A DNA stretch of 64,000 bases from Metabacillus litoralis (lineage in GTDB: Bacteria; Bacillota; Bacilli; Bacillales; Bacillaceae): assembly GCF_007994985.1 (NCBI RefSeq), contig NZ_VOQF01000005.1, positions 248,001-312,000 of the forward strand, read 5' to 3'. The translations under genes were made by a program, and so were the position numbers. How positions within the stretch are numbered: the first letter of the stretch is position 1; each line of letters opens with the position of its first letter. Shown here piece by piece: positions 5,007-63,753 of the stretch. Below the pieces are notes generated by a model that was given only the letters and a program-made list of their open reading frames with translations, searched no databases and was not told where the DNA came from.

Positions 5007-5202
5007 ATAGAATGGAAAGAAAAACTAAATGAACTGGCTACGGAATGAAGAATCTGAATAATTGATTTAAGGTTTAAGGAATCTTAACTTACTTAATAAA
5101 AGGCTGTGTTAAAGATTGTTATTGAATTTGAGTACTTTGTTATATGTCTGCAACGGTCCTCAACAACCAACTATAACTTGGCCTAATTAAAAGGAGATGC
5201 CA

Positions 5203-8200: not shown

Positions 8201-8412
8201 CATCCTTTACGTTTTTAGGGGACACAAAGGTAACGTACTACAATACAGAAAGAAAAAATACGTATGGAACGGATAAAGTTGAAGTGAAATCTTTTAACTT
8301 AAAATACAAAGATGGAAGTTCCAAAAAAATTGAAAGTTCTATAGTAGTTAATGAAGATGCGAAGGCAATTAGAAATGGTGAGATAAAAGAAATAGATATA
8401 GAACTTTGTTAA
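5203..8412 (+). CDS. GH94 phosphorylase, likely 1,2-beta-oligoglucan phosphorylase
   Basis: A 1069-aa cytoplasmic glycoside phosphorylase. The putative catalytic acid is Asp654 in GWNDAMNG, which matches the WND(G/A)MN motif of family GH94; the segment FWVDHWTYNLDL about 120 residues earlier and the HGRGF loop near residue 945 fit the same fold. Cellobiose phosphorylases have about 800 residues; the length here and the N-terminal style (MKNYYFDEKKRMVIEDYDKAKTF) fit 1,2-beta-oligoglucan phosphorylases such as Listeria Lin1839. Such enzymes split beta-1,2-gluco-oligosaccharides with phosphate to give glucose 1-phosphate. ATG 5203 is chosen because AAGGAG (5191-5196) lies six bases before it and abuts the alternative ATG 5197. 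The linkage specificity is from recalled similarity and locus content, not measured. A strong terminator follows. Confidence 0.8.
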   Translation: MKNYYFDEKKRMVIEDYDKAKTFSSFLPGVAGIKGVPMWTFYVNRGQGISSFGVRDKHSPIMEFSPANIAYKNVSTTGFRTFIKLNDRKMVYEPFQPTLNKKIKRKMYIEANQISIEEVNEELGLSTVIEYFNMPEESFAGLVRKVQIRNLTKKQLNIEVLDGMPEVLPYGVENQLYKEMGNLLRSWMEVYNLNNKIPYYHVRASIGDEAEVNEVKEGHFFLTFSNDEKIISPIVDTEIIFGSDHSLLNPENFVKKPLEDLVEKLQVTANKVPCAFTPIQKSIGEEEAIEIFSIIGHVSNIDLINNRVNDLVNVDYINQKQLLANRLIRQLTDKINTKTGSEMFDEYARQSYLDNFLRGGYPYLLDNKKDGFVYHLFSRKHGDQERDYNFFSIAPEYFSQGNGNFRDMNQNRRNDIYFEPAVGSFNTKMFMSLIQADGYNPLLVKGCSFEIAANQQAQLKELIKEHVQSHQEQIINLLDSKFTPGQLINYIANENVQLTIDDQAFLTDILSISQQNIEAGFGEGFWVDHWTYNLDLVESYLDVYPDHFVDFMFKDKSYKYFDSPAYVLPRSEKFVLSKGNVRQFGSVIEDKEKMSKLGIAINDTNWLRIENGSGEVYHTTLFVKLLSLSLMKFVTLDPLGIGVEMEANKPGWNDAMNGLPGLIGSGISETFELRRIVEFLLTTTEEYKNNQVDVPVEYAELLEGTSGLVDQYFKGNVDDFHYWDQVASMRESFREKIRFGINGEESRLSLSELKGVYKNFLNKIDLGIKRAEELGEGLYPTYLSYEVNEFDVLENNLSQYGLPKVKIYGFSNPTVLPYFLEGPARALKAISDQDKAKTIYQKVKKSDLFDKNIKMYKTSVSLDNESFEIGRIKAFTPGWLERESVFLHMSYKYLLEVLKSGLYDEYFNDIQTSLIPFLDPETYGRSTLENSSFIASSVNPDPSVHGRGFIARLSGSTAEFLSMWKMMMIGKKTFHISEGQLVLTLSPNLPSWMFDESGRASFTFLGDTKVTYYNTERKNTYGTDKVEVKSFNLKYKDGSSKKIESSIVVNEDAKAIRNGEIKEIDIELC

Positions 8413-39597: not shown

Positions 39598-40788
39598 ATG
39601 GGGAATTCAAAAATTCCAGTTACTGTTTTAAGTGGTTACTTAGGATCAGGTAAAACAACATTACTAAATCATATTTTGAAAAATAAAGAAGGTATACGTG
39701 TGGCAGTTATTGTTAATGACATGAGTGAAATTAATGTAGATGCTTCTTTAATAAAGCAAGGTGGGTTTACACGCACTGATGAAAAGCTTGTAGAGCTTCA
39801 AAACGGGTGCATCTGCTGTACACTTCGTGAGGACTTAATTTTCGAAGTGGAAAGGTTAGTAAAGCAAGGAAACATAGATTACCTTGTTATTGAGTCTACG
39901 GGAATATCTGAGCCAATTCCTGTTGCTCAAACTTTTACGTATGTTGATGAAGAACTTGGAATTAATCTCTCAGATTATTGTGAATTAGATGCAATGATTA
40001 CGGTAGTTGATGCGAATCGATTTTGGCATGATTTTTCTTCCGGAGAAACATTACTAGATCGAAAGCAGGCAACAGATGAGAGAGATACAAGAGAAGTTGT
40101 TGATTTATTAATTGATCAAATTGAGTTTGCCAACATCATTCTTCTAAATAAAGCGGATCTTGTGAAGGGAGAGGATATGAATGAATTAAAGGCAGTAATG
40201 AGGAAGTTGAATCCAGAAGCTAAAGTCATTGAGAGTGAATTTTCAAAGGTTCAGCTAGATCAGGTTTTACATACTAAATTGTTTGATTTTGAAAAATCGA
40301 GTCAGGCTGCAGGCTGGATACAGGAGTTGACGGGAGAACATGTTCCCGAAACAGAGGAATATGGAATATCTTCTTTTGTTTATAATCGAAGAAAACCATT
40401 TCATCCAGAAAGATTTATGAAATGGCTTGAAGCTTGGCCTGTTGATGTTGTCCGGGCAAAAGGTTTCTTTTGGTTAGCTTCCAGGAATGAAACAACAGGT
40501 CTTCTATCACAAGCAGGTCCATCTATTATTATTCAAGCTGCAGGTGAATGGGTGGCAACTTATCCACAACAAGAGCAAAAACAAATTTTACAAGAGGAAC
40601 CAGAGTTACTTGAAAAGTGGGATTCTATATACGGTGATCGGATGACTGAGCTTGTGATGATTGGTATTGATATGAACAGAAGTGCTATAGAGGAATCACT
40701 AGATCATTGCTTATTAACTGAGGAAGAAATGGAACATGATTGGTCAAGATTCACTGATCCGTTGCCACTATTTACAGTAGCAGGATAA
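39598..40788 (+). CDS. COG0523 zinc metallochaperone GTPase (ZagA/YciC-like)
   Basis: A 396-aa G3E GTPase. Walker A is GYLGSGKT (residues 13-20), the metal-binding CxCC is Cys71-Ile-Cys73-Cys74, and NKAD lies near residue 183; the CobW C-terminal domain follows (YNRRKPFHPERFMKWLE). In B. subtilis the Zur-controlled ZagA (formerly YciC) delivers zinc to FolE when zinc is short. AAAGGAGGG precedes the ATG. The two Zur boxes and the zinc-free L33 gene 28 bases downstream support the same role here. Confidence 0.93.
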   Translation: MGNSKIPVTVLSGYLGSGKTTLLNHILKNKEGIRVAVIVNDMSEINVDASLIKQGGFTRTDEKLVELQNGCICCTLREDLIFEVERLVKQGNIDYLVIESTGISEPIPVAQTFTYVDEELGINLSDYCELDAMITVVDANRFWHDFSSGETLLDRKQATDERDTREVVDLLIDQIEFANIILLNKADLVKGEDMNELKAVMRKLNPEAKVIESEFSKVQLDQVLHTKLFDFEKSSQAAGWIQELTGEHVPETEEYGISSFVYNRRKPFHPERFMKWLEAWPVDVVRAKGFFWLASRNETTGLLSQAGPSIIIQAAGEWVATYPQQEQKQILQEEPELLEKWDSIYGDRMTELVMIGIDMNRSAIEESLDHCLLTEEEMEHDWSRFTDPLPLFTVAG

Positions 40789-40816
40789 ATTTATTTTAAA
40801 AATGGAGGAATCATAA

Positions 40817-40966
40817 ATGAGAGTAAACATTACATTAGCATGCACAGAAACTGGAGATCGCAACTATATAACAACCAAAAATAAACGCAATAACCCAGAT
40901 CGAATTGAATTAAAGAAATATTGTCCAAGATTAAAGAAGCACACATTGCACAGAGAAACAAAATAA
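40817..40966 (+). CDS. rpmG: Ribosomal protein bL33, zinc-independent paralogue
   Basis: A 49-aa bL33. The zinc form has two CxxC pairs; here the first reads CTET and the second CPRL, so each pair has lost a Cys. This is the C-minus type that replaces the zinc-binding L33 under zinc starvation and so frees zinc, known from Zur regulons of B. subtilis (RpmGC). GGAGG precedes the ATG. It is 28 bases behind the zinc GTPase gene, in the same Zur-controlled operon, with a terminator after it. Confidence 0.93.
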
Positions 40967-40975
40967 TGTTTAGTA

Positions 40976-41028: not shown

Positions 41029-41057
41029 TTGACACTCTTCAAGACCTAGACTATGAT
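41029..41057 (+). promoter_or_regulatory. Sigma-A promoter of the B12 operon
   Basis: TTGACA (41029-41034) is a perfect -35 box, 17 bases before TATGAT (41052-41057). Transcription would begin near 41064, just before the cobalamin riboswitch. Confidence 0.85.
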
Positions 41058-41081
41058 TAAGTAATTGAATTGAATAACTAA

Positions 41082-41244
41082 AAAATAGGTTGATAGATGT
41101 ATAATCTATCATGAAAAGGGAAGATCGGTGCAAATCCGACGCGGTCCCGCCACTGTAAATGGGAGCTTTTTTACGATGAACCACTGTCGCAAGATGGGAA
41201 GGTGTAAAAGGTGATGATCATGAGCCAGGAGACCTGCCTATTTT
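41082..41244 (+). ncRNA. Cobalamin (adenosylcobalamin) riboswitch
   Basis: The conserved B12-element blocks appear in order: CGGTGCAAATCCG, then GCGGTCCCGCCACTGTAA, then GGGAAGGTG and the strongly conserved GAGCCAGGAGACCTGCC. The closing stem P1 is formed by AAAATAGG (41082-41089) and CCTATTTT (41237-41244). It should turn off the downstream transporter operon when cobalamin is plentiful, through the terminator at 41333. Confidence 0.96.
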
Positions 41245-41332
41245 GTTTATACCTTATTACTACGCGGATAGAAGGGTGTTATTATAGATGAAATATGTCT
41301 AATTAAGCCATATGTAATTCTAAACAACACTT

Positions 41333-41357
41333 ATCTCCTTCGTAGGGGATTTTTTTA
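41333..41357 (+). terminator. Expression-platform terminator of the B12 riboswitch
   Basis: ATCTCC (41333-41338) pairs with GGGGAT (41345-41350) around TTCGTA and is followed by seven T. It stands 24 bases before the ribosome site of the first structural gene. An antiterminator partner could lie in the 41245-41332 stretch, but I could not define it. Confidence 0.8.
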
Positions 41358-41395
41358 TGCCCAATTTTATCAAATAGATGGGGAGAGATTTTCGT

Positions 41396-43714
41396 ATGTT
41401 AAACAAATTAAGATTGTCTTTATTATCATTTCTGTTAGTATTTACTGTGTTTTTTGGGACTTTGCAGCCATCTGCTCAAGCAGAGGAAGTTGTAAAAGAT
41501 GAAACAATTAGTGTAGTTGGTAATAGTGAAACATTACTAGAAGAGACAACGTTTAGTTATGAAGAAAATATGACAGCATTAGATGTGCTTATAGATGCTG
41601 TTGGTGAAGAGAATATCGAATTCGAAGATACAGATTTTGGAAAAATGATAATTGGTATTAATGGAGTAAAGCCTGCTGAAGATGAAAGTTTTTATTGGGC
41701 GATTTTTATTAATGGAATTGCATCGCCAGTTGGTGCTGAATCGTATATTGTTCAACCAGGAGATTCGATTAGTTATAGATATATAGATTATATGGAAGCA
41801 GCTGATTCGGCAACATTAAATGTGATCAATGGAGATGATATACAGGAATTTTATCCATCCACGTTTATTGATAACCCAACAGCATTAGATCTTTTAAACC
41901 TATTAGTAGGAAAAGACAATGTAGGTGTTACTTACTATGGAGAAGATGCTTTTGTTAACAGTATTAATGGTGTAGCAACAGAAGGTAATAGTTATTGGGC
42001 TTTTTATATCAATGATGAAATGGCAAGTACAGGATTAAATGGACACACTCTAAAAAATGGTGATAAGATCACGTTAAACTACGAAACATGGGAAGAAGAA
42101 TCACCTGAAAATCCAGAAGAGCAACCGGAAACAGAGGAACCAACAAAGGCCTTTGATTCAGTTGAATTTAACAAAGCTGTTAACTCTGCAAGTCAATATA
42201 TTCTTTCTAATAAAGTAGAAGATTGGCAAGCTGTTGCACTTAATAAAGCAGGAAAATCACTACCAGCTTCCTATTCATCAAACTTAAAATCACTAATTCT
42301 TGAGAAAGATGGCATGTTCTCAAAAATCACAGATTATGAGCGCTTAACATTAGGGATATTAGCTGCTGGTAAAGATCCAAGAAATTTTGAAGGGCATAAT
42401 TTAGTAGAGTCAATATATAATGGAAACGTAACGAAGCAAGGACTAAATGGTGTTGCTTACGCACTGATTGCGTTAGATAGTGCGAACTTCCAAGTTCCTA
42501 AAACGGCAAAATGGACAAGAGAGAAGCTAATAGCTGAGTTACTCAAGAATCAACACGATGATGGTGGTTGGTCATGGTCTCTAAATCCACCAAGTGATAG
42601 TGATACAACAGCTATGGTATTAACTGCTCTAGCACCTTATAAAAATCAAGCAGATGTGAGCTTGGCAATTGAAAAAGCAGTAAATTATTTGAAAGAACAA
42701 TATCAAGGATCTACGGTGGATAATAGTTCAACAGCAGCAACAATTGTTATTGCATTATCAGCTCTAGGAATTGATTCACACAGTGAAGAATTTACAAAAA
42801 ATGAGAATAGTTTAATAGAGTTTTTACTTACTTTCCAAAATAAAGACGGTGGATTTGATTGGCAAGGTGGAGAAGAAAGTGACTCATTTTCTTCAGATCA
42901 AGGATATCGTGGGATTGTAGCGTATCAGTTATTTTTAGCAGATAAAGGCTCTTTATATACATTGCCTTTGAATACTAATAAGGTTGAAGATGGTAATCTA
43001 TTGGTTAAGGATCACTCTGATCTTGTAATTAAAGCTAGCAATGTTTATAAAGTGAAAAAAGATGCTAAAACATTTACACTTACAAATGAACTGTTAAAAG
43101 GTCTACCACAGAATTCTTCGATTGAAGTATCAAATGGAAAAGTGAATGCTACTGTTCCCGTTGCATTACTTTTAACGAATTCAGATGTTATTTTCAGCTT
43201 TGGTGAGGTTTCTGAAGCAGTAAAAAATACTAGTGATCTAGTAAGTGATTTATACGATTTTACAATTACTTCAGAAGGAAAGACAATAAGTGATTTTGGA
43301 AATCATGTTGTCAATTTAGGATTTGATCTTACTAACTTTAATGGTGATTGGGATCAGCTTCGTATTTATCATGTTGATGAAAATGGAAATAAACTTGAAG
43401 AAATGAAAACTACTTATGATGCAAAAACAAACCAAGTATTTGCAAGTGTAGGTCATTTCAGCATTTACGGAGTATTCGAGCTACAAAAAAATTCTATAAA
43501 AGAACCTGTTGTGAAAGAAGATAACTCTTCTGAACAGAAAGGCGAGGTTCAGCAAGATCAAGTTCAACAAAAAGAAAAAACTTCATCAAATGGCAACCGC
43601 CTGCCAAACACAGCAACACCATTATTTAACTTAATTGCACTAGGTGGAGCACTAATGTTAATTGGAGCTGGTGGTACAATTTATTCAAGAAGACGTCAAA
43701 CAAATAAAATTTAA
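41396..43714 (+). CDS. Wall-anchored transcobalamin-like cobalamin-capture protein
   Basis: A 772-aa secreted protein under a cobalamin riboswitch. Residues 1-29 are a signal peptide (PSAQA). Two DUF4430/transcobalamin C-domain-like modules follow (about 57-132 with YWAIFINGI, and 139-231 with YWAFYINDE), then an acidic Pro-rich linker (232-252) and an alpha/alpha-barrel region (about 255-525) of prenyltransferase/squalene-cyclase repeat type (NQHDDGGWSW, QNKDGGFDWQGG). A beta-rich part follows. Near the end stands the sorting signal LPNTA (736-740), a hydrophobic helix and RRRQ. Vertebrate intrinsic factor and transcobalamin use the same two folds in opposite order to bind B12. I infer that it captures cobalamin at the wall. 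ATG 41396 has GGGAGAG upstream; ATG 41378 overlaps this site. Confidence 0.85.
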   Translation: MLNKLRLSLLSFLLVFTVFFGTLQPSAQAEEVVKDETISVVGNSETLLEETTFSYEENMTALDVLIDAVGEENIEFEDTDFGKMIIGINGVKPAEDESFYWAIFINGIASPVGAESYIVQPGDSISYRYIDYMEAADSATLNVINGDDIQEFYPSTFIDNPTALDLLNLLVGKDNVGVTYYGEDAFVNSINGVATEGNSYWAFYINDEMASTGLNGHTLKNGDKITLNYETWEEESPENPEEQPETEEPTKAFDSVEFNKAVNSASQYILSNKVEDWQAVALNKAGKSLPASYSSNLKSLILEKDGMFSKITDYERLTLGILAAGKDPRNFEGHNLVESIYNGNVTKQGLNGVAYALIALDSANFQVPKTAKWTREKLIAELLKNQHDDGGWSWSLNPPSDSDTTAMVLTALAPYKNQADVSLAIEKAVNYLKEQYQGSTVDNSSTAATIVIALSALGIDSHSEEFTKNENSLIEFLLTFQNKDGGFDWQGGEESDSFSSDQGYRGIVAYQLFLADKGSLYTLPLNTNKVEDGNLLVKDHSDLVIKASNVYKVKKDAKTFTLTNELLKGLPQNSSIEVSNGKVNATVPVALLLTNSDVIFSFGEVSEAVKNTSDLVSDLYDFTITSEGKTISDFGNHVVNLGFDLTNFNGDWDQLRIYHVDENGNKLEEMKTTYDAKTNQVFASVGHFSIYGVFELQKNSIKEPVVKEDNSSEQKGEVQQDQVQQKEKTSSNGNRLPNTATPLFNLIALGGALMLIGAGGTIYSRRRQTNKI

Positions 43715-43851
43715 TGATAATGAGGGTAACTCAATAGAGTACTAGTTTATTTCCTGTTTAGGAGATCGGTAGGAAAATGAGTTTCCCTCGTTTTCTGTAT
43801 CTAGTTTATACTATATAAAGAGCTTTCCTAGGATAGACAGGGGGTATTGAA

Positions 43852-44688
43852 TTGAAAAGACTTAACAAAGTGTTATTAGCATTTATTATGATCATGATGT
43901 TTTTAATAGGCTGTGAAAAAGATGAGGTAGTTCCTATAACAGAAAAAGCAAGTGTTGAGGAAACTACTGAAGCATCTTCAGAAGATAAAGAAGTAGCAAC
44001 ACATAATGGTCATGAAGAAAGTCAGGATCCTACTGAAGAAAGTAATAAAGAAGAATCAAGCCAAGACACTACTGAAAAGAATGAAAAAGCAAGTGATGTG
44101 GCTTCAGAAGATAAACAAGAAACATCATCAACAAATACTTCTAAGGAGAAAGAAACCTCAAGTAACAAAACTGAGAAATCAACAGAACAGCAAAAGTCTA
44201 AATCAGCGGCAACTCCAGAAGTTGATGAAAAAAAGAAATCTTCAACAGCAACACAAACTGCTAAAACAACTTCTGAAGTAAATACGACACCAAAAGAAGA
44301 AGCAAAAAAAGAGAAAGTAACCGCTCCACCGGTCGTTAAAAAAGAGGAACCGAAACAAACAGTTACTATAACAATTGCTGGTGATCAAGAAAAAGGAACA
44401 GTTCTTTCTTCAACAAAGGTAGAAATGAGTGAAGGCAATACAGTACTTGATATTACAACGAAAATTCTTAAGCAAAAGAAGATACCAATTAGTGTGACTG
44501 GTAGTGGTTCAGGTGCTTATGTGGAAGGTATTGCAAATTTGTTTGAATTTGATCGAGGTCCTTTAAGTGGTTGGACGGTGAAAAAAAATGGTACGACTTT
44601 AGATCGAAGTGCTGGCATTGTTAAAGTGAAAAGTGGTGATAGCATTCAGTGGATTTATACAACAAATTATGAAGAGGATGGAAACTGA
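43852..44688 (+). CDS. DUF4430 lipoprotein, likely cobalamin-binding
   Basis: A 278-aa lipoprotein. The signal peptide ends in the lipobox LIGC, so Cys21 should carry the lipid. A ~140-residue low-complexity spacer rich in Glu, Ser, Thr and Lys would reach through the wall. The C-terminal DUF4430/transcobalamin-like module (about 170-275) has the hallmark YVEGIANLFEFDRGPLSGW followed by TVKKNG. It starts with TTG preceded by AGGGGG. Its stop overlaps the ATG of the ECF T subunit by one base. I infer that it takes the ligand from the wall protein and hands it to the membrane transporter. Confidence 0.85.
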   Translation: MKRLNKVLLAFIMIMMFLIGCEKDEVVPITEKASVEETTEASSEDKEVATHNGHEESQDPTEESNKEESSQDTTEKNEKASDVASEDKQETSSTNTSKEKETSSNKTEKSTEQQKSKSAATPEVDEKKKSSTATQTAKTTSEVNTTPKEEAKKEKVTAPPVVKKEEPKQTVTITIAGDQEKGTVLSSTKVEMSEGNTVLDITTKILKQKKIPISVTGSGSGAYVEGIANLFEFDRGPLSGWTVKKNGTTLDRSAGIVKVKSGDSIQWIYTTNYEEDGN

Positions 44689-45572
44689 TGAGAGGAGTTC
44701 ATGCTTTTCATCCTTTTGTCCTTTTTCTATATTATGTTGGAGCAGCAACACTGGTCATGCTATATAAGCATCCGGTGTTTTTGTTTGTAGCGATCATTTT
44801 GTTCATTATCTTTAATCTTCAATTAGATGGGGGAAAAGCATTAAGAGGATGGTTCTTTATGCTGTTTTATTTATCATTCTTTTTCTTATTAATTAATCCG
44901 CTGGTGAATCGAAAGGGAAATCATATTTTATTTTATTTTAATAACAATCCAGTGATGCTTGAGGCTGTTATTCATGGGATCATTGCTGCTCTATCAATCT
45001 TTGCACTGCTTGTTTTATTTCTTTCCTATAATATCGTTATTACTGCTGACCGGTTTTTATATTTATTTTCAAAATGGTTACCACAGTGGGCTCTTCTCAC
45101 AATGCTTTCCATGAGATTTATCCCATTGTTAAAAAGAAGATTAAGAGAGATTGAAACGGTTCAACAAAGCAAAGGATTGTCAGTAAAAGGTGGAAAACTA
45201 AAAGATCGTGCGAAAAATGGAATATTGCTTGTGCAAATTCTTTTAACTTGGTCATTAGAGGAAGCGATTCAAACAGCTGATTCGATGGCAGCACGTGGTT
45301 ATGGACTTAAAAAGAGAAGCAAATATACACCATACAGAATGCGAAAGATGGATTGGATCGCTCTCGTTTATATTGTATTATTCACGATTGTTGCATTGTT
45401 TGGATGGTGGTTAGGTGATGGCGTGTTAAGCATTGAGCCAGTGTTAGAAACAATGGTAATTGAGGGACGTGAATGGTTTTATTTATTGATGTTTTCACTG
45501 TATATTGGTGCACCACTAATGATTGAAGGAAGGGAGGCGCTCCTATGGCATTTTTGGAGACAAAAAACCTAA
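44688..45572 (+). CDS. ECF transporter transmembrane subunit (EcfT/CbiQ-like)
   Basis: A 294-aa membrane protein with about six or seven helices. The coupling-helix motif that docks the ATPases is visible as SMAARGYG (about residues 201-208); a second, altered one is ETVQQSKGL. It overlaps the lipoprotein stop by one base and the ATPase gene by 28 bases. No cbiM or cbiN gene is present, so this is not a cobalt CbiMNQO system. It would form the energising module for the S subunit at 47182. Confidence 0.9.
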   Translation: MRGVHAFHPFVLFLYYVGAATLVMLYKHPVFLFVAIILFIIFNLQLDGGKALRGWFFMLFYLSFFFLLINPLVNRKGNHILFYFNNNPVMLEAVIHGIIAALSIFALLVLFLSYNIVITADRFLYLFSKWLPQWALLTMLSMRFIPLLKRRLREIETVQQSKGLSVKGGKLKDRAKNGILLVQILLTWSLEEAIQTADSMAARGYGLKKRSKYTPYRMRKMDWIALVYIVLFTIVALFGWWLGDGVLSIEPVLETMVIEGREWFYLLMFSLYIGAPLMIEGREALLWHFWRQKT

Positions 45573-47200
45573 GCTTTGCATATCCAGAAGAGAAAATAAA
45601 GGTGCTTAATGATGTTTCATTTTGCGTAGAACAAGGTGATTTTGTTGTTTTATGTGGACCATCTGGAAGTGGTAAGTCGACTCTTCTGCGACTATTAAAG
45701 CAGGAGCTTGCTCCACATGGTGAAAAAGAGGGAGACATTTTCCTCGAAAATAAACCTCTACTAGATATTTCGCCTGCACAGGTTGTAAAAGACATTGGCA
45801 TGGTTTTTCAAGATCCAGAAAATCAAATTGTTATGGATCGTGTTCTCGAAGAACTAATTTTTGGGATGGAGAATTTCGGAACATCAACAGAAGAGATGCG
45901 AAAAAAAGTGGCTGAAATTGTTCATTTTTTTGGTATAGAAGGACTGCTCAATCGTAAGACCCATGAGCTTTCTGGAGGCCAAAAGCAACTAGTCAATTTA
46001 GCTTCTGTTTTATTATTAGAGCCGAAGCTATTATTGCTAGATGAACCAACGTCACAATTAGATCCTGTTGCTTCAAGAGAATTTATTGGCATGCTTCATA
46101 CAATGAATGAGGAATTTGGGATAACAGTGATTATCGCAGAGCATCGGCTAGAAGAGCTTTTTGCTATTGCTGATAAAGCTCTTGTGTTAGACAAGGGAGG
46201 TATTTTATCATATGATACGCCACGACATGTTATTGATTTTTTAAGCGAATATAAAGATCATGCAATGTATCATTATTTACCAAGTCCGGCCCGTCTATAT
46301 TTAGAATATTCCCCATCAAAAGTGAATGGTGATATCCCACTGTCAGTTAAGGAAGGGAAGAATTGGTTAAAGAATGTAGCTATTACACCGAGAGAGGGTA
46401 TTTTGAGGGGAAATCATCATACACCTAAGAAAGAAATAATGAACATAAAAGAAATTGATTTTCAGTATTCAAAGGACTCAAGTAAGATTCTTAATGATTT
46501 GTCATTAAGTATTTTTGAAGGTGAATGGCTTTCAATTGTTGGGGCAAATGGAACGGGAAAGTCAACATTACTAAAAGTCATTGCTGGACTCGAGAAACCA
46601 CAACGAGGATCAATATTTTACAAAGCGAAGAAATTTAAAAAACAACTTCCAAAAGAAATCGGCTATCTCCCACAAAATCCTAAGTTGTTCTTCATCCACG
46701 ACACGATTGGTGCTGAGTTAAGATATCTTGAACAATTACATCAAATCGGTGATGGTGAAACTAGGATTGAGGAGTTGCTAGAAATTTTCAACTTAAAAGA
46801 ACTAGTTCATCGTCATCCTTATGATGTTAGTGGAGGAGAGATGCAAAAGGCTGCATTAGCGGGAGTGCTTCTTCCTAACCCAAACTTGTTATTAATAGAC
46901 GAACCGACAAAGGGACTTGATCCAGAAGCTAAGCTTAAGCTTGGTAAGCTACTACAAACATTACAACAAAAGGGCTTAACAATCGTTATGGTCACACATG
47001 ATATTGAATTTGCTGCACAATATTCAACAAGGTGCGCAATGATGTTTCAAGGAACGATTACAACAAATTCTCCAACGAAAAGCTTTTTTCAGGGAAATGC
47101 ATTCTACACGACAGTTCTAAATCGAATCACTAGAGGAAGTGAAGTTCCAGATGTATTAACGTTAGAGGAGGCTCGCAAGACTTGGCGCGTTCAAGAATAA
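45545..47200 (+). CDS. ECF transporter double ATPase subunit (fused A-A')
   Basis: A 551-aa protein with two full ABC ATPase domains. Domain 1: Walker A GPSGSGKST, signature LSGGQKQ, Walker B LLLLDEPTSQLD. Domain 2 (from about residue 300): Walker A GANGTGKST, signature VSGGEMQK, Walker B LLLIDEPTKGLD. Fusion of the two ECF ATPases in one chain is seen in some dedicated (group I) ECF transporters. GGGAGG precedes the ATG. It overlaps both neighbouring transporter genes, which argues for stoichiometric production. Confidence 0.93.
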   Translation: MAFLETKNLSFAYPEEKIKVLNDVSFCVEQGDFVVLCGPSGSGKSTLLRLLKQELAPHGEKEGDIFLENKPLLDISPAQVVKDIGMVFQDPENQIVMDRVLEELIFGMENFGTSTEEMRKKVAEIVHFFGIEGLLNRKTHELSGGQKQLVNLASVLLLEPKLLLLDEPTSQLDPVASREFIGMLHTMNEEFGITVIIAEHRLEELFAIADKALVLDKGGILSYDTPRHVIDFLSEYKDHAMYHYLPSPARLYLEYSPSKVNGDIPLSVKEGKNWLKNVAITPREGILRGNHHTPKKEIMNIKEIDFQYSKDSSKILNDLSLSIFEGEWLSIVGANGTGKSTLLKVIAGLEKPQRGSIFYKAKKFKKQLPKEIGYLPQNPKLFFIHDTIGAELRYLEQLHQIGDGETRIEELLEIFNLKELVHRHPYDVSGGEMQKAALAGVLLPNPNLLLIDEPTKGLDPEAKLKLGKLLQTLQQKGLTIVMVTHDIEFAAQYSTRCAMMFQGTITTNSPTKSFFQGNAFYTTVLNRITRGSEVPDVLTLEEARKTWRVQE

Positions 47201-47868
47201 TTGTCATAGCAATGTTTTTATTGATTAGTATCACTATTTTGACAACACCTCTTTTAGCTGATAAGTACTTTCTTCCATTTAGCATAATCATCATGTTGCT
47301 GAGCTTTGTTCCTTTTATTATTCGGTTTGAACGAAGAAAGGTTGCTGGAAGAGAGCTTGTTTTATTAGCTGTATTAGCAGCGATTGCAGCTGTTAGTAGA
47401 GTACCCTTTGCTTCCATCCCAAGTGTTCAACCAACAACCTTTGTTATTATTGTCGCAGCACTTGCTTTTGGTGCAGAAAGTGGGTTTGTTGTTGGTGCAC
47501 TTGCTGCATTAGTATCTAATTTATTTTTAGGGCAGGGACCTTGGACACCTTGGCAAATGTATGCTTGGGGGATGATTGGATTAAGTGCAGGTTTATTAAG
47601 AAATACATGGATGATGAAACATAAAGTCGGAAAAGTTATTTTTGGATTTATAACAGGTATCTTATTTGGATGGGTCATGAATTTATGGTATTTTGTTAGC
47701 TTAGATGAAAGTATAACAATTACTGCGATAATAGCTAGATATAGTGCCAGCTTATATTTTGATTTAGCACATGCATTTTCTAATGTTTTTTTCTTGATTA
47801 TTTTTGCAGACAGCTGGTTAAAGATTTTACAGCGTTTTCGGAAAAAATATGGTTTGCTAGACAAGTAG
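47182..47868 (+). CDS. ECF transporter S subunit, predicted cobalamin-specific
   Basis: A 228-aa integral membrane substrate-binding subunit. It has about seven or eight hydrophobic segments, the first two forming an N-terminal extension; the core shows the S-component style VLAAIAAVSRVPFASIPSVQP and GAESGFVVGALAALVSNLFLGQGPWTPWQM. The riboswitch and the transcobalamin-like proteins in front suggest cobalamin or a precursor, as for CbrT of lactobacilli. TTG start with AGGAGG ten bases upstream; overlaps the ATPase gene by 19 bases. It is the last gene of the operon. Confidence 0.87.
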   Translation: MARSRIIVIAMFLLISITILTTPLLADKYFLPFSIIIMLLSFVPFIIRFERRKVAGRELVLLAVLAAIAAVSRVPFASIPSVQPTTFVIIVAALAFGAESGFVVGALAALVSNLFLGQGPWTPWQMYAWGMIGLSAGLLRNTWMMKHKVGKVIFGFITGILFGWVMNLWYFVSLDESITITAIIARYSASLYFDLAHAFSNVFFLIIFADSWLKILQRFRKKYGLLDK

Positions 47869-47903
47869 TGTTAATCCTGATCATGAGGGATTAACACTTT
47901 TTT
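47867..47903 (+). terminator. Terminator of the B12 operon
   Basis: An 11-bp stem (47867-47877 with 47888-47898) with a T-run to 47903; its 5' arm begins at the stop codon of the S-subunit gene. Confidence 0.9.
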
Positions 47904-55702: not shown

Positions 55703-58700
55703 ATGTCGTGGATTACAAAATGGTCTTTTAAAAATAAGGCTGCAGTCATTTTAATGTCATTAATTATTTTAGTTATGGGGGTTTTGAGTTATTTCAGGTT
55801 ACCAATGGAGTTTCTTCCATCTGCAGATCAACCGTTTATCTCTGTTGTCACAATGGGAGAGGGAATGGATGCAAAATCGATGGAGAAGCAAGTAACAACT
55901 CCTATTGAAAAAGCAGTTGATTCAATAAGTGGGATAACGAATGTATTCTCAACAACAGGTGATGGGTATTCATCAGTTGATATTCACTTTGAATCAGGTG
56001 TTGAAAAAAAAGAAGCAAAACGGGAAATTGAAGAAGCTCTAGGAAACGTACCTTTTCCAACAAATGTGATGAAACCGAATATTGTTCAGTTAAACACATC
56101 GATGATTCCTGTTTCATATGTTGCTCTTACATTTGATGAAGGAATTAATCCTAATACAATACAATATGCAGAAGACGAAATTGTTCCTTATTTTAAAAAC
56201 ATCGACGGAGTTTCTGATATACAAACAAATGGTGTTATTCCCTCATATGTTTCGGTTAAGTTAAATGAGGATAAAATGGCAGAAAAACAAACCTCTGTTG
56301 AACATATTATGTCATTGCTTCAAGGACAAACAAATGCCACTGCTGTTGGAGTAAAGGATATCGATGGCAAAGCCTCAAATATTAAAGTAGTTGGTGATAT
56401 CACAACACTTGAGAAACTTAAAGAAACTGAAGTAATTCCAACAGTGGCGCTTAAAGATGTAGCAGAAACCAACATACAAAAACAAGAAAATAATTTAACT
56501 AGATTAAATGGTAAAGATGGACTGATCTTTGTGATCACAAAAGATAGCAGTTCAAATGCTGTCACAATTAGTAAAGATGTCAAAAAGGCTTCAAAAGAAA
56601 TAAATAAGAAATATGATGATTTAGAAACAACAGTAATTTTAGCTACAGCAGATATGGTTGAATCATCTGTACACAGTATGATTAAGGAAGTTTTACTTGG
56701 TGCTTTATTTGCAACAATTGTTATTATGATCTTTCTACGAAATCTTCGCTCAACATTAATTACGATTATTTCAATACCATTATCACTAGGATTTACTTTA
56801 TTTCTGCTTGCTCAATCAGGAGTAACCTTAAATGTTTTAACACTTGGTGGAGTTGCAGTTGCAGTGGGGAGACTTGTAGATGACAGTATTGTTGTGATTG
56901 AAAATATTTTCAGAAGAGCACAAACTGAGAAGTTTTCGATAAAAATGGTTATTGATGCAACAAAAGAGGTTGGTGTGGCGATTACATCCTCAACTTTAAC
57001 AACTGTCGCTGTATTTTTGCCGATGGGCTTAATTCAAGGAAGCTTGCAAGATTTCCTTCTTCCTTTTGCCTTGACTATAACGTACTCCCTTTTAGCGTCA
57101 TTAATTGTTGCGATTACCATCGTTCCAATTATGAGTGCGGGGTTACTGAAAAATGCCAAAATAAAAGAACACAAACCATCAAAAGGATTCGCAAATTTCC
57201 TAACTTGGTCTTTGAATCATAAGTGGGTTGTTCTTTTAACAGCCTTCTTCTTATTAGCTGGATCAATTGGAGCATATGTGGTTCTGCCAAAAGGATCTGT
57301 GGATAAAGCAAAAGCAGATTATGTACTTGTTTCATTAGAATATCCAAATGAAACACCTATTGAAAAGGTTAAGGAAGAATCTTTAAAATTAGAGGATTAT
57401 ATTCTTAAACAAAAAGAGCTTGATCATGTTTATGTACAGTTGGGGAATACAGAGGATGGAGCTAAATTTGGCTCTGTTGAAAGTCCTACGAAAACAATGA
57501 TTATGGCTATTTTGAAAAAGGATGCTGAAATGGGAGGATTTGTTGATAAAATTCACTCGCAAAAAGCTGAATATAAAGATGCGACATTAGAAGCTACAGA
57601 AGCAACGATGATGAGTGGTGGTGGAACATCTATCACAATCGATGTTATCGGCGAGGATATTGAACAATTAATCAATGTATCTGAAACAATTACAGCTGAA
57701 ATCAAAGATGTAGATGGAGTGGAAAAGGTTTCATCAAATCAAGAAGAAACAAAAACAGTTTATTCATTTGTTGTTGATCCAAGTATGGCTAAAGCAGATC
57801 AAATCGCCCAGCAAGCTTCAGTTATGCTCAATAAGACTCCATTGGGTTTAATAGAAATGAACGATCAACAAACAATGGTGATGCTTGAGCCGATTTATAA
57901 CCCAGAAACGAAGCAAGAACTTTCAGAAGTTCCGATCATGACTGCTGATGGATTATCAACAATTTCAGATGTTGCAAAACTACAACAAATAGAAGAGCCT
58001 ACTAGTACATTCCATAAAGACGGAGAGCAATATGTCAGAATTACAGCTAATGTTGAACCAGAAAACCTGTCTGCCATTTCAGCAGAAGTGAACAAGAAAA
58101 TCTTTGGTGATCAAGAGGTTAAGGGAATAAAGGTTCCTGATAATATTGATGTTTTAGTTGGTGGAGCAAGTGCTGATCAACAAAGTGATTTTAATGACTT
58201 GTTTATGACTATGCTAGCATCAATTGGAATTGTCTTTCTAATTATGGTTATTACATTTAAAACAATCCGTGCACCTATTGCGATCTTATTTTCTTTACCA
58301 CTAGCAGCAATTGGCGCTATTTTAGGAATACTGATAAGTGGTATTTCTGTTGACATTACAGCATTGCTTGGTGCTCTTATGTTAATCGGTATTGTTGTAA
58401 CAAATGCAATAGTTCTTCTAGATCGAGTAAAACAAAACGAAAAAACAATGATTATTAGAGAGGCAGTAGTTGAAGCTGCATCAATAAGAATGCGTCCAAT
58501 TATTATGACGGCCGTTGCCACAATTTCAGCAATGCTTCCATTGCTATTTAAAGAAGCGGAAACTGGTAATTTAGTATCTGCTAGTTTAGCAGTAGTTGTT
58601 ATTGGTGGATTAAGTGTAGCCACAATGTTAACCTTAGTCGTGATACCTGTTGTATATGAATTACTGCATTTTAGAACAGCTAAAAAACAAAGACAACAAA

Positions 58701-58732
58701 TAGAGAAGCAAGACGATACAATAGCAGTATAA
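55703..58732 (+). CDS. RND-family exporter (SwrC/AcrB-like)
   Basis: A 1009-aa multidrug or lipopeptide exporter of the HAE RND group with twelve membrane helices and two large extracytoplasmic loops. The proton-relay Asp pair is Asp393-Asp394 (GRLVDDSIVVIEN) in helix 4. B. subtilis SwrC (YerP), its closest described kind, exports surfactin and supports swarming. GGAGAAAAG precedes the ATG. No membrane-fusion or outer-membrane partner is expected in a Gram-positive, and none is present. Monocistronic with its own terminator. Confidence 0.93.
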   Translation: MSWITKWSFKNKAAVILMSLIILVMGVLSYFRLPMEFLPSADQPFISVVTMGEGMDAKSMEKQVTTPIEKAVDSISGITNVFSTTGDGYSSVDIHFESGVEKKEAKREIEEALGNVPFPTNVMKPNIVQLNTSMIPVSYVALTFDEGINPNTIQYAEDEIVPYFKNIDGVSDIQTNGVIPSYVSVKLNEDKMAEKQTSVEHIMSLLQGQTNATAVGVKDIDGKASNIKVVGDITTLEKLKETEVIPTVALKDVAETNIQKQENNLTRLNGKDGLIFVITKDSSSNAVTISKDVKKASKEINKKYDDLETTVILATADMVESSVHSMIKEVLLGALFATIVIMIFLRNLRSTLITIISIPLSLGFTLFLLAQSGVTLNVLTLGGVAVAVGRLVDDSIVVIENIFRRAQTEKFSIKMVIDATKEVGVAITSSTLTTVAVFLPMGLIQGSLQDFLLPFALTITYSLLASLIVAITIVPIMSAGLLKNAKIKEHKPSKGFANFLTWSLNHKWVVLLTAFFLLAGSIGAYVVLPKGSVDKAKADYVLVSLEYPNETPIEKVKEESLKLEDYILKQKELDHVYVQLGNTEDGAKFGSVESPTKTMIMAILKKDAEMGGFVDKIHSQKAEYKDATLEATEATMMSGGGTSITIDVIGEDIEQLINVSETITAEIKDVDGVEKVSSNQEETKTVYSFVVDPSMAKADQIAQQASVMLNKTPLGLIEMNDQQTMVMLEPIYNPETKQELSEVPIMTADGLSTISDVAKLQQIEEPTSTFHKDGEQYVRITANVEPENLSAISAEVNKKIFGDQEVKGIKVPDNIDVLVGGASADQQSDFNDLFMTMLASIGIVFLIMVITFKTIRAPIAILFSLPLAAIGAILGILISGISVDITALLGALMLIGIVVTNAIVLLDRVKQNEKTMIIREAVVEAASIRMRPIIMTAVATISAMLPLLFKEAETGNLVSASLAVVVIGGLSVATMLTLVVIPVVYELLHFRTAKKQRQQIEKQDDTIAV

Positions 58733-61417: not shown

Positions 61418-63319
61418 TTACTTTAGACCGGCTGCAATTTTCACCTTATCTTGATGAGAGGGATCAATTTGCCCGTCTTTGTGGCGTGTCGAATTTTTGA
61501 AATGAATATCAAAATGTCCGGTCATTCCGTTGTTACTAATATAATCAACATCATGTGGAGCAAAAGACATACTGGCCGCGATTTTTCGTCCATCAACTTC
61601 AACAATTACTGGGCGAGTAGACCAACTAAATCCACCCCAAATGCCTTTTGCAATCGTTGTATCAGCAGTTGTAACTGTTTCACAATCAGCATGGTTTGCC
61701 CCAATTGTTCGCTTAATTTTAAAGCTTTTTCCTGTTTGAAAATCAGTAATCGTGACAGTTTTACCAATAGGAAATACATATTGTGCTTCTGTCCACCAAT
61801 CTAGATATTCCCCATGACGCTCACTAACCGTTTCTTGAACAGCAATTTGATGAACAGGAATGGTGAGCTTTTGACCGATTGAAAGCCTGCTTGATGTTGT
61901 TAATTTATTGGCTCTTAAAAGCTCGGCTTGTGGAATACCATATTTCACACTTAAATTCCATATATTATCCCCAGAAACAACAGTGTGGGTGCGATAAGAA
62001 ACTGTATTTTCTTCTTTTTCTATAGCTTGATCACCAGTTTCAGGCTTTACTGTTCCTTTTATCAGTAAAGTTTGCCCAACAAAGATTAATTCTGACTTTA
62101 AAGAGTTCAAAGACATAATATCAGATGTAGTTACACCAAAGTTCTTAGCGATTTGTGAAAGTGAATCACCACTTTTTACTGTGTAGGTTTGTTGCGACTG
62201 CTGTTCCTTTAGTTGTAGCTTTTGACCAAGAAAAATATTATCCGTATGTAAATTAGTTATTTCCTTTAAATAACTTACAGTAAGTCCGTAGCGTTTCGCA
62301 ATTCCAGAAAGAGTATCACCTGCTACAACAGTATAAGTAGTAGGAGTTGAAACATTATTGTTAACAGTGTTTGGCTCGTTAGTTGTCGGATTTGATATCT
62401 TTAAGGTTTGTCCCACAATAATCGTGGTGTTTGTTAATAAATTCAGGTTCATGAGTTCTTGAACAGTCGTGTTGAATTTTTTTGCAATAACAGATAAGCT
62501 ATCACCACTTACAACTGTATATAGATCAGGTAAGGTGTCAGCTGCTTCCGTTTGCTTTTGAGATTCTACATGTTGTTGGCGAGGTATGTTAATTTTTTGA
62601 CCAATAGTAATGAAATCTTTAGTCAAATTATTTTCTGATTTAATGGCAGCAACAGTTGTACCAAACCTTTTTGCCAAAACAGATAGGGAATCACCCGCTT
62701 GTATTGTATAGATTGTAGCATTAGTACCTGTATCTTCCAATGGTTTTGAAATGCTTGTAGGAACATATAATGTTTGTCCTGGAAAGATAACATCTGAATT
62801 CATATTATTTTGAGCTTTTAGTCTGTCAATAGAAACAGAATAAGCTTTAGCAATAACTGAGAGAGAGTCACCAGATTTTACAGTGTATTTTATTAATGGT
62901 AATTGCAACACTTGTCCAATTCTGATAGTGTTTGTTGTTAATTTATTGAAGGATGTTAACTCATTAGTGGTGATGTTATACCTTTTGGCTATAACACTTA
63001 AAGAGTCCCCACTTTTCACTGTATAAGTTAAAGCAGTATGAACTGTCATATCTGGTTCAGCTGCTTTTGCTGTTGTTTTTGAAGATATTCCGGAAAATGA
63101 AAACATACATACAATAATTCCACCGGCAACTACCTTTATCGTGTTAATTTTTAGATTAGGAAAACGACGTTGTGCATAAGAACTAATTTCTTCTTGACGA
63201 GTATTCGTTACTTCAGTACCTAATTCTGTTGCAAATTCTGTGTCAAAATCAGATACATATAAAATTAATGTGGCTCCGTCCTGATGATGTTCAACTTTAT
63301 ATTTATGCAAAAATTCCAC
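61418..63319 (-). CDS. Seven-LysM wall-binding protein with cytoplasmic N-domain
   Basis: A 633-aa protein. The first ~55 residues (EFLHKYKVEHHQDGATLILY) are soluble, followed by a membrane helix near 65-80, so it is probably a type-II membrane protein. Seven LysM modules follow, each starting Y/HTVxSGDSLS and ending IGQ.L.IP, in residues about 100-500. The C-terminal ~130 residues form a separate domain (FPIGKTVTITDFQTGKSFKI, GANHADCETVT, GHFDIHFKNSTRHKDG) that I cannot name; His, Asp and Cys residues in it could be catalytic. I start at GTG 63319 because GGAGGTG precedes it; a longer frame to 63481 overlaps the promoter of the divergent gene. Confidence 0.85.
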   Translation of the reverse strand: MEFLHKYKVEHHQDGATLILYVSDFDTEFATELGTEVTNTRQEEISSYAQRRFPNLKINTIKVVAGGIIVCMFSFSGISSKTTAKAAEPDMTVHTALTYTVKSGDSLSVIAKRYNITTNELTSFNKLTTNTIRIGQVLQLPLIKYTVKSGDSLSVIAKAYSVSIDRLKAQNNMNSDVIFPGQTLYVPTSISKPLEDTGTNATIYTIQAGDSLSVLAKRFGTTVAAIKSENNLTKDFITIGQKINIPRQQHVESQKQTEAADTLPDLYTVVSGDSLSVIAKKFNTTVQELMNLNLLTNTTIIVGQTLKISNPTTNEPNTVNNNVSTPTTYTVVAGDTLSGIAKRYGLTVSYLKEITNLHTDNIFLGQKLQLKEQQSQQTYTVKSGDSLSQIAKNFGVTTSDIMSLNSLKSELIFVGQTLLIKGTVKPETGDQAIEKEENTVSYRTHTVVSGDNIWNLSVKYGIPQAELLRANKLTTSSRLSIGQKLTIPVHQIAVQETVSERHGEYLDWWTEAQYVFPIGKTVTITDFQTGKSFKIKRTIGANHADCETVTTADTTIAKGIWGGFSWSTRPVIVEVDGRKIAASMSFAPHDVDYISNNGMTGHFDIHFKNSTRHKDGQIDPSHQDKVKIAAGLK

Positions 63320-63465
63320 AGCTACACCTCCACCTATAGTATGGAAAAAGATAAGGGAAATTATCCTAAGTGAGGGTGTTGTGAAATTGTCAAACTTAAT
63401 TGTCATGATCTCTTTAAAAGCTTGTATAATGAAGAGAGAACGCTTTGAAAATTGGAGTTGAAAAG

Positions 63466-63753
63466 ATGTTTCATTCATCAATTGGGTTATTGAGATTTAC
63501 TGGTATTTTAGAAGGAGTTTCTTATCTTGTATTATTACTAATTGCGATGCCGTTAAAGTATTTTTTTGATTTTCCAATGGCTGTAACAATTGTTGGGGGC
63601 ATGCATGGGTTCCTTTTTGTCATTTATGTGATTATGGTTGCATTTGTTAAATTTCAAAAACGCTGGTCTGTCTTATGGGGATTCTGGGCTGTATTATTAG
63701 CATTTATTCCTTTTGGTACATTTTATTTGGACAAGCAATTAAAAACAAAATAA
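63466..63753 (+). CDS. DUF3817 small membrane protein (YdzA-like)
   Basis: A 95-aa integral membrane protein with three helices. The start FHSSIGLLRFTGILEGVSYLVLL and the GGMHGFLFVIYV segment are the DUF3817 signature. Role unknown. ATG 63466 has GGAG eight bases upstream; TTG 63445 overlaps the ribosome site. A TATAAT at 63425-63430 lies upstream, with TTGTCA at 63400 but a 19-base spacer. Confidence 0.87.
   Translation: MFHSSIGLLRFTGILEGVSYLVLLLIAMPLKYFFDFPMAVTIVGGMHGFLFVIYVIMVAFVKFQKRWSVLWGFWAVLLAFIPFGTFYLDKQLKTK

What the first reader, a model, noticed from the sequence alone, without database searches (positions are those of the whole stretch)
41029..47903. Riboswitch-controlled transcobalamin-like capture system feeding a complete ECF importer
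Seen: a strong promoter, a cobalamin riboswitch with terminator, then five genes overlapping or closely spaced: a wall-anchored protein with two DUF4430/transcobalamin-like modules and an alpha/alpha-barrel region, a DUF4430 lipoprotein on a ~140-residue spacer, ECF T, double ATPase and S subunits. Known: vertebrate intrinsic factor, haptocorrin and transcobalamin bind B12 between an alpha6-alpha6 barrel and a small beta domain of the DUF4430 type, and CbrT-type ECF S subunits import cobalamin. Inferred: a relay wall protein - lipoprotein - ECF S subunit, replacing the BtuF-BtuCD route. The module order (beta domains before the barrel, in two copies) differs from the vertebrate proteins. I know of no experimental description of this full relay in a Bacillus.
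Basis: partly seen in the sequence, partly recalled or inferred. Interest (0 to 1): 0.9.

Follow-up and report, generated by a model that had tools for sequence, protein, structure and literature searches.

The report
Riboswitch-controlled vitamin B12 capture operon
A Bacillus relative (genus Metabacillus) carries a B12-sensing RNA switch in front of genes for two surface proteins related to the animal B12 carriers and a membrane pump related to a proven bacterial B12 importer, very probably a B12 scavenging line whose hand-over steps have not been tested.

Summary
A cobalamin riboswitch (122.8 bits) with a terminator-like hairpin precedes five genes: an LPNTAT-anchored protein (two DUF4430 domains plus an alpha/alpha toroid), a DUF4430 lipoprotein on a ~150-residue spacer, EcfT, a fused EcfA-A' ATPase, and an S subunit homologous to CbrT, a proven B12 importer. 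A profile of the wall protein finds transcobalamin-1 in the PDB (E 1.9e-7). Of 80 relatives picked by the wall protein alone, 66 hold all five components and 67 a cobalamin riboswitch.

The idea is not new: Burroughs et al. 2007 predicted B12 scavenging for this architecture.

Seen here: in 74 of 78 Bacilli genomes with this S subunit a DUF4430 gene lies within 4 kb; lipoprotein spacers measured 75-179 residues in 43 full operons and 15-48 in 16 compact ones; full-operon S subunits form one group and carry an N-terminal extension that CbrT lacks.

The parts
41029..41057 (+). promoter-like site TTGACA-17-TATGAT
   Evidence: 11 of 12 matches; count of such sites in the region is at chance level
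41070..41255 (+). cobalamin riboswitch aptamer (RF00174)
   Evidence: 122.8 bits, E 2.4e-30, model 1-189 of 189
41333..41357 (+). putative attenuator: 7-pair hairpin plus run of T; a longer alternative stem can form upstream
   Evidence: (whole stretch folds no better than shuffles, z -0.99); such a hairpin in 44 of 61 leaders, window included, 0.7 expected from mononucleotide shuffles
41396..43714 (+). wall-anchored capture protein, 772 aa from this start (ORF opens at 41378)
   Evidence: homologue in 15 of 21 genomes of the genus
41501..41788 (+). first DUF4430 (transcobalamin beta-type) domain
41813..42085 (+). second DUF4430 domain, 30% identical to the first
42170..42970 (+). alpha/alpha toroid domain; last Asp of the terpene-cyclase DxDD motif absent
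43010..43582 (+). C-terminal module, absent from 9 of 11 aligned wall proteins, recurring in other wall proteins of this genome
43601..43618 (+). LPNTAT sorting motif, followed by a hydrophobic stretch and RRR
   Evidence: (LPxTATN model 40.0 bits, cut-off 32)
43852..44688 (+). DUF4430 lipoprotein (LIGC lipobox, Cys at residue 21)
43915..44364 (+). E/K/T/S-rich spacer of the lipoprotein, about 150 residues
44365..44670 (+). DUF4430 domain of the lipoprotein
44688..45572 (+). EcfT (CbiQ family PF02361)
   Evidence: E 3.9e-11
45545..47200 (+). EcfA-EcfA' fused double ATPase
   Evidence: (TIGR04520 361.9 bits, cut-off 315)
47182..47868 (+). S subunit, CbrT-like from residue 54-57 on; residues 1-51 hydrophobic, probably two extra helices
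47867..47898 (+). operon-end terminator hairpin, 12 pairs, then T run

Best explanation
A B12 (corrinoid) scavenging operon. When adenosylcobalamin is scarce the riboswitch lets transcription pass the attenuator (inferred from the RNA family and the hairpin). A sortase-anchored surface protein catches the corrinoid, probably between its toroid and DUF4430 domains as in intrinsic factor (inferred). A DUF4430 lipoprotein, on a spacer long enough to reach into the wall, takes it over (inferred). A CbrT-type S subunit with its own EcfT and EcfAA' imports it (inferred by homology to a proven B12 importer). Shown: gene order, RNA family, homologies, conserved co-occurrence. Not shown: ligand binding, hand-over, transport. 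In this genome it stands beside de novo synthesis genes and a BtuFCD-type set.
For: S profile matches CbrT (PDB 6fnp_A) at E 7.7e-26, next chain E 0.13; 6FNP is the B12-transporting ECF-CbrT (PMC5997447, passages). Wall profile matches transcobalamin-1 at E 1.9e-7 and transcobalamin-2 at 4.9e-4 through DUF4430. Of 80 loci chosen by the wall protein alone (the best 80 of 300), 66 have all five components and 67 a cobalamin riboswitch: 65 by model R1 (all on the gene strand; four of the 80 were in R1's training set) and 2 more by Rfam in the 15 left over (one of them barely over threshold); in 61 of 80 it lies under 700 bp before a capture gene. Of 250 Bacilli genomes 78 have this S and all 78 have DUF4430; 9 of the other 172 do. 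Two genus-mates (G060, G069) lack cbiD and a close BtuF, have three B12-binding-domain proteins each, and have exactly three cobalamin riboswitches: this operon, B12-independent metE, and class I nrdAB.
Against: No structure model could be made. The toroid resembles terpene cyclases far more than the animal alpha domain: Cobalamin_bind PF01122 matched 2 of 27 members, best E 0.033, and no transcobalamin chain was hit up to E 10. The own genome already has synthesis and BtuFCD-type genes. In 20 compact S regions only 7 have a B12 riboswitch by Rfam. The 5 genomes without a close BtuF all have the operon, but that would happen by chance about 15% of the time (my arithmetic). After the aptamer the RNA folds no better than shuffles. 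Thirteen of 80 relatives show no cobalamin riboswitch in the fetched stretch, and 14 lack some component (several are cut off by contig ends).
Confidence: 0.82

Rival explanations
1. The operon scavenges a corrinoid other than complete B12 (cobinamide, a cobamide with another lower base, or a precursor); the riboswitch only reports the end product. (A sub-case of the best explanation, not exclusive with it.)
For: CbrT binds cobinamide about fourfold more weakly than cobalamin (PMC5997447, passages); Burroughs 2007 says 'B12 or its precursors'; this genome has late-synthesis genes (CobT-, CobU-, CobS-like by eye) near its BtuFCD-type set, so it could finish an imported precursor.
Against: None decisive. 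G060 and G069 lack cbiD and still have the operon, but cbiD is not needed for precursor salvage.
Confidence: 0.3
2. Import is of B12, but there is no relay: the wall protein stores or concentrates B12, or serves adhesion, and the lipoprotein alone feeds, or merely gates, the S subunit. (Compatible with the import part of the best explanation.)
For: 18 of 20 compact regions hold a short DUF4430 gene beside or near S and none of the 20 holds a toroid, so lipoprotein plus S seems enough in those species; CbrT binds B12 without help (PMC5997447).
Against: Measured spacers are 75-179 residues where a capture protein is encoded and 15-48 where none is, which fits reaching towards the wall protein.
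Confidence: 0.4
3. The ligand is not a corrinoid: DUF4430 proteins here catch another cofactor and the riboswitch is a bystander.
For: DUF4430 has a PDB relative named only 'putative metal binding protein' (3u7z); the S subunit also hits general ECF-S families.
Against: CbrT homology, cobalamin riboswitch in 67 of 80 relatives, a cobalamin adenosyltransferase (Pfam, L239) or a B12-dependent RNR (Pfam, L250) beside compact versions.
Confidence: 0.04
4. The toroid is an enzyme (squalene/terpene cyclase-like) displayed on the wall.
For: Best sequence relatives are cyclases (E 2.7e-20); one plasmid relative is annotated terpene cyclase/mutase.
Against: The last Asp of DxDD is absent in 27 of 27 aligned toroids; 3 of 139 toroid domains hold any DxDD; it is outside the cell and sits in a riboswitch-preceded transport operon.
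Confidence: 0.02

Closest known systems
Bacterial SLBB (DUF4430)-toroid proteins of Burroughs et al. 2007 (PMC1796856)
   Same: Beta-grasp before toroid in Bacillus, wall anchor, second SLBB protein in the operon, CbiO/CbiQ genes, proposed B12 scavenging
   Different: The main text holds no mention of riboswitch, lipoprotein or BtuF; it says carriers usually lack B12 synthesis, whereas 10 of 15 operon-bearing genomes of the genus have cbiD
ECF-CbrT of Lactobacillus delbrueckii (PDB 6FNP, PMC5997447)
   Same: S subunit homologous over residues 54-224 of the profile; ECF T and AA'
   Different: Here S has an extra ~50-residue hydrophobic N-terminus, its own T/AA' in the operon, and two capture proteins
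Vertebrate intrinsic factor, haptocorrin, transcobalamin
   Same: Beta domain homologous; both have an alpha/alpha toroid (for the animal proteins as stated in PMC1796856)
   Different: Order reversed, two beta domains, anchored to the wall, alpha domain not recognisably homologous by sequence
'Additional lipoprotein component of putative cobalamin ECF transporter' (table entry in PMC9963975)
   Same: A lipoprotein annotated as part of a cobalamin ECF transporter in Lacticaseibacillus rhamnosus
   Different: A line in a proteomics table, seen as a passage only; I did not compare its sequence
BtuF-BtuCD
   Same: Extracytoplasmic binder feeding an ABC importer for B12
   Different: Unrelated binder and membrane parts; BtuFCD-type genes exist separately in this genome

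Membership tests
Cobalamin riboswitch RF00174 | Covariance-model score above gathering over the full aptamer | tested here: met
   122.8 bits vs 31.5, 1-189 of 189
Cobalamin riboswitch RF00174 | Binds adenosylcobalamin and switches the gene | not testable with these tools
   only a hairpin with T run seen; fold no better than shuffles
ECF transporter with dedicated module | EcfT, two EcfA-type ATPases and S in one operon | tested here: met
CbrT family S subunit | Sequence homology to CbrT | tested here: met
   E 2.4e-16 single, 7.7e-26 profile
CbrT family S subunit | Binds and transports cobalamin | not testable with these tools
   needs ITC or complementation
Transcobalamin / intrinsic factor | Beta (DUF4430) domain homologous | tested here: met
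   transcobalamin-1 E 1.9e-7, 8e-5 with DUF4430 alone; intrinsic factor only 0.47
Transcobalamin / intrinsic factor | Alpha domain of Pfam Cobalamin_bind type | tested here: not met
   2 of 27 members, best E 0.033; no transcobalamin chain at E up to 10
Transcobalamin / intrinsic factor | Alpha6-alpha6 barrel fold with B12 between the two domains | not tested
Bacterial SLBB-toroid B12 scavenger (Burroughs 2007) | SLBB plus toroid, surface anchored, with CbiO/CbiQ-type genes | tested here: met
Class II terpene/squalene cyclase | DxDD motif | tested here: not met
   0 of 27 have the last Asp
Sortase-anchored wall protein | LPXT-type motif, hydrophobic stretch, positive tail; sortases in genome | tested here: met
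   five sortase matches in the genome

The most novel reading that the evidence does not exclude
An ECF importer fed by dedicated extracellular carriers: the CbrT-type S subunit in Bacillota receives B12 from a DUF4430 lipoprotein as a standing partner, and in one derived group (S with two extra N-terminal helices, lipoprotein with a long tether) from a wall-held intrinsic-factor-like protein further out. ECF transporters are generally described as doing without a separate binding protein (recalled), so this would be a distinct ECF class and a likely bacterial parallel or ancestor of the animal B12 carriers.
Probability: 0.45. Interest if true: 0.75.

Novelty: new member of a known kind. Interest (0 to 1): 0.52.

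Why it matters
If the relay is real, Gram-positive bacteria have a B12 capture line across a thick wall that parallels the BtuG/BtuB surface system of Bacteroides (PMC6977713, passages) and uses the same beta domain as animal B12 carriers. It would also mean that an ECF importer can have an extracellular binding protein. Two genus-mates with neither cbiD nor a close BtuF make the function directly testable, since this operon is the only import candidate at a cobalamin riboswitch in them.

Tried and rejected

Animal alpha domain by sequence: searched with toroid profile A5, no transcobalamin chain up to E 10; Pfam PF01122 weak in 2 of 27. I did not compare the toroid with a transcobalamin sequence directly.

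Own regular expression for riboswitches missed most of those that covariance model R1 then found. A first riboswitch alignment (A2) held four rows in the wrong orientation and was redone (A3).

Neighbouring cobW gene (39598-40788) considered as a B12 gene and rejected: best match is the zinc GTPase ZigA (545 bits, under its 600 cut-off), followed by an L33-like rpmG (recognised by eye).

Plasmid search with the wall protein: 13 records, none with one place covering 80% of it: no sign there of the whole wall protein on plasmids. GC content of the operon (0.33-0.38 in 1-kb steps) does not stand out from its flanks.

Tree of S subunits: full-operon S is one side of a branch (100/99), but the extension columns were not taken out, 22 of 62 full rows were used, and six compact rows are flagged as long branches.

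Pasted lists: for I left out part of the lower-scoring DUF4430 rows; by eye none of them changes the four S genomes counted as 'not near'. One search used 60 of the 65 riboswitch loci plus the window (L087, L092, L096, L118 and L127 left out).

Papers, passages only unless said: PMC1796856 (also abstract, outline and one reviewer's report), PMC5997447, PMC4350170, PMC9963975, PMC11477304, PMC5462765, PMC10368641, PMC6977713; PMC10117117 was fetched but the term was not in its main text. Two older comparative-genomics papers are not held. No experimental description of the full system was seen in the listings; the library lacks most subscription journals.
Full report
What is there. Window 41029-47903 holds what looks like one transcription unit on the + strand: a promoter-like site, a full-length cobalamin riboswitch, a hairpin with a T run, five genes with overlaps or short gaps, and a closing terminator hairpin. 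The first gene makes a secreted protein with two DUF4430 domains, an alpha/alpha toroid, a C-terminal module found in other surface proteins of the same genome, and an LPNTAT sorting signal; the genome has five sortase matches. The second makes a lipoprotein with a DUF4430 domain behind about 150 residues rich in E, K, T and S. Then come EcfT (CbiQ family), a fused EcfA-EcfA' and an S subunit. The closest relative in the named collection is Metabacillus crassostreae (73% in the best segment of the wall protein); its contig has the same length as that of G053, a genome of the same genus as the window's, so the window is from a Metabacillus.

What the parts are related to. A profile of 11 wall proteins finds transcobalamin-1 in the PDB at E 1.9e-7 and transcobalamin-2 at 4.9e-4, through DUF4430; intrinsic factor is only at 0.47. 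DUF4430 alone still finds transcobalamin-1 at 8e-5 (transcobalamin-2 at 0.15), the Trp that is invariant in 23 bacterial domains falling on a Trp of both. The toroid's sequence relatives are terpene cyclases and prenyltransferases (26 of 27 members hit Prenyltrans at E up to 1); the last Asp of their DxDD motif is absent in 27 of 27. The animal alpha domain was not detected beyond noise (2 of 27, best E 0.033). The S subunit matches CbrT (6fnp) at E 2.4e-16 alone and 7.7e-26 as a profile, the next chain being at 0.13; 6FNP is the structure of ECF-CbrT, shown to transport cobalamin and cobinamide (PMC5997447, passages).

Is the arrangement conserved? Of 80 genomes of the family (own included), 22 match the wall protein; 16 of these (15 of the 21 in the genus, and G008) match its capture region, the other 6 only its C-terminal module. 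The same 15 of the genus have S. Fifteen neighbourhoods were fetched (14 genus-mates and G008): all 15 have wall, lipoprotein, T, AA' and S in this order, the ATPase match of L043 being in two adjoining pieces. Twelve of those 15 were scanned with Rfam and 12 have a cobalamin riboswitch before the wall gene. Outside the genus, a scan of genome contigs with the wall-protein profile found 300 relatives, of which the tool kept the best 80, from Bacillaceae, Paenibacillus, Clostridium, Desulfotruncus, Oscillospiraceae and others, and including some of the same Metabacillus. Of these 80, 66 hold all five kinds of component, 65 have a cobalamin riboswitch by model R1 at E under 1e-10, and of the remaining 15 two more have one by Rfam, one of them at 33.4 bits against a threshold of 31.5. 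In 61 of 80 it lies within 700 bp before a toroid or DUF4430 gene. The own genome has six such riboswitches in 4.88 Mb, so about 0.02 would fall in a 16-kb stretch by chance. Forty-four of 61 leaders (window and 60 of the 65 riboswitch loci) have a terminator-like hairpin after the aptamer; mononucleotide shuffles give 0.7. Against this, the window's own leader after the aptamer folds no better than shuffles as a whole.

The own genome's other five riboswitches lie before a cbi/cob cluster (two of them; CbiD, CbiH/CobJ, CobB and CobQ, and cobalt-transport CbiM, named by NCBIfam over their cut-offs; the other genes read by eye), before CobT- and adenosyltransferase-like genes (by eye), before a BtuF/BtuC/BtuD-type set, and before class I nrdAB. 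The BtuFCD naming rests on best families below their NCBIfam cut-offs plus the riboswitch and neighbours. So the operon is an addition here. Across 21 genomes of the genus (own included), S is in 15, a close BtuF (51% identity or more) in 16, cbiD in 15. None lacks both importers; the 6 without S all have BtuF and the 5 without BtuF all have S, which chance would give about 15% of the time (my arithmetic). G060 and G069 lack cbiD and a close BtuF. Each has exactly three cobalamin riboswitches: this operon, metE (Pfam, both) and nrdAB (Pfam in G069, same sequence type by eye in G060). They have three B12-binding-domain proteins each, with lengths as of methylmalonyl-CoA mutase subunits and MetH (not annotated further). 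In these two species this operon is the only import candidate at a cobalamin riboswitch. Each also has a distant BtuF-like ABC set (25-31% identity), not at any cobalamin riboswitch of its genome, which I cannot exclude as an importer.

S and DUF4430 as partners. In 250 genomes drawn from the class, the S profile hits 78 and DUF4430 hits 87. All 78 have DUF4430; 9 of the other 172 do, and the one of these that I fetched (G233) has a divergent S beside it. In 74 of 78 a same-strand DUF4430 lies within 4 kb. Genomes are related, so the Fisher value (4e-55) overstates independence. Two layouts appear: full operons, and compact ones. Of 20 regions fetched with a short S or with DUF4430 but no S hit, 18 have a short DUF4430 gene beside or near an S, none has a toroid, and 7 have a B12 riboswitch by Rfam. 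A cobalamin adenosyltransferase (Pfam in L239, look-alikes by eye in others) or a B12-dependent RNR (L250) sits next to some.

A length clue to the mechanism. From lipobox Cys to DUF4430 is 15-48 residues in 16 of 18 compact lipoproteins (two had no recognisable lipobox) and 75-179, median 146, in 43 of 61 DUF4430-only ORFs directly before ecfT in full operons (18 had none recognisable in the first 70 residues). The measured ranges do not overlap. A tether that appears only with an outer capture protein suits a hand-over across the wall. Full-operon S subunits also share a hydrophobic N-terminal extension of about 50 residues, seen by eye in the 77 S ORFs listed where the start is clear (some are one gene fetched twice), which CbrT lacks (match starts at 54-57). 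They form one side of a branch with 100/99 support (extension columns included, 22 of 62 full rows used). Three compact-type regions with an ATPase gene of their own (L244, L245, L256) have a shorter extension, so the trait may go with a dedicated ECF module and not with the lipoprotein.

Most likely working. Low adenosylcobalamin leaves the riboswitch in its read-through form (inferred). The wall protein catches the corrinoid (inferred from homology), the tethered lipoprotein carries it inward (inferred), and S with EcfT-AA' imports it (inferred from CbrT). I put corrinoid import at 0.82 and the complete relay at about 0.45; the first two rivals are variants inside the import reading, so the odds overlap.

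Known and new. Burroughs et al. 2007 (PMC1796856; abstract, passages, one reviewer's report) already described SLBB-toroid fusions in Bacillus with the toroid C-terminal, wall anchors, a second SLBB protein in the operon, CbiO/CbiQ genes, B12 scavenging, and transfer to animals. Its main text does not mention riboswitches, lipoproteins or BtuF. A lipoprotein is already annotated elsewhere as a component of a putative cobalamin ECF transporter (PMC9963975, passage). I therefore class the locus as a new member of a known, predicted but, as far as the listings show, untested kind. I saw the spacer rule, the S extension group and the G060/G069 regulon in no passage that I read, but I ran no search aimed at them.

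Noticed in passing
39598-40967: cobW-family gene closest to zinc GTPase ZigA (below cut-off) followed by a small L33-like rpmG at about 40818-40967 (by eye): probably a zinc-starvation pair, not B12.
   Followed up: partly
43010-43582: C-terminal module of the wall protein (residues 545-735) recurs in other large wall proteins of the same genome (up to about 3000 aa) and resembles the C-terminus of a nucleotidase family; no Pfam name.
   Followed up: partly
L009 (own genome C74:126001-140000): A cobalamin riboswitch precedes class I nrdAB, so B12 may repress the B12-independent reductase.
   Followed up: partly
L108, L112 (Clostridium): Capture genes with up to five toroid hits in one ORF, several capture genes in a row.
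   Followed up: no
L120, L121, L131, L134: EcfAA' and S hits fall in a single ORF of 808-936 aa: possible ATPase-S fusion.
   Followed up: no
L244, L245, L256 (one family of the class): Compact cluster where a 223-235 aa gene and an ATPase gene lie between DUF4430 and S; S has a shorter N-terminal extension.
   Followed up: partly
L043 (G054): The double-ATPase match is in two adjoining pieces, so the gene may be split there; left as is.
   Followed up: no
55703-58732: AcrB/AcrD/AcrF-type RND pump of 1009 aa.
   Followed up: no
61418-63481: Protein with seven LysM stretches on the minus strand.
   Followed up: no
5197-8412: 1071-aa ORF with no Pfam hit at 1e-8.
   Followed up: no
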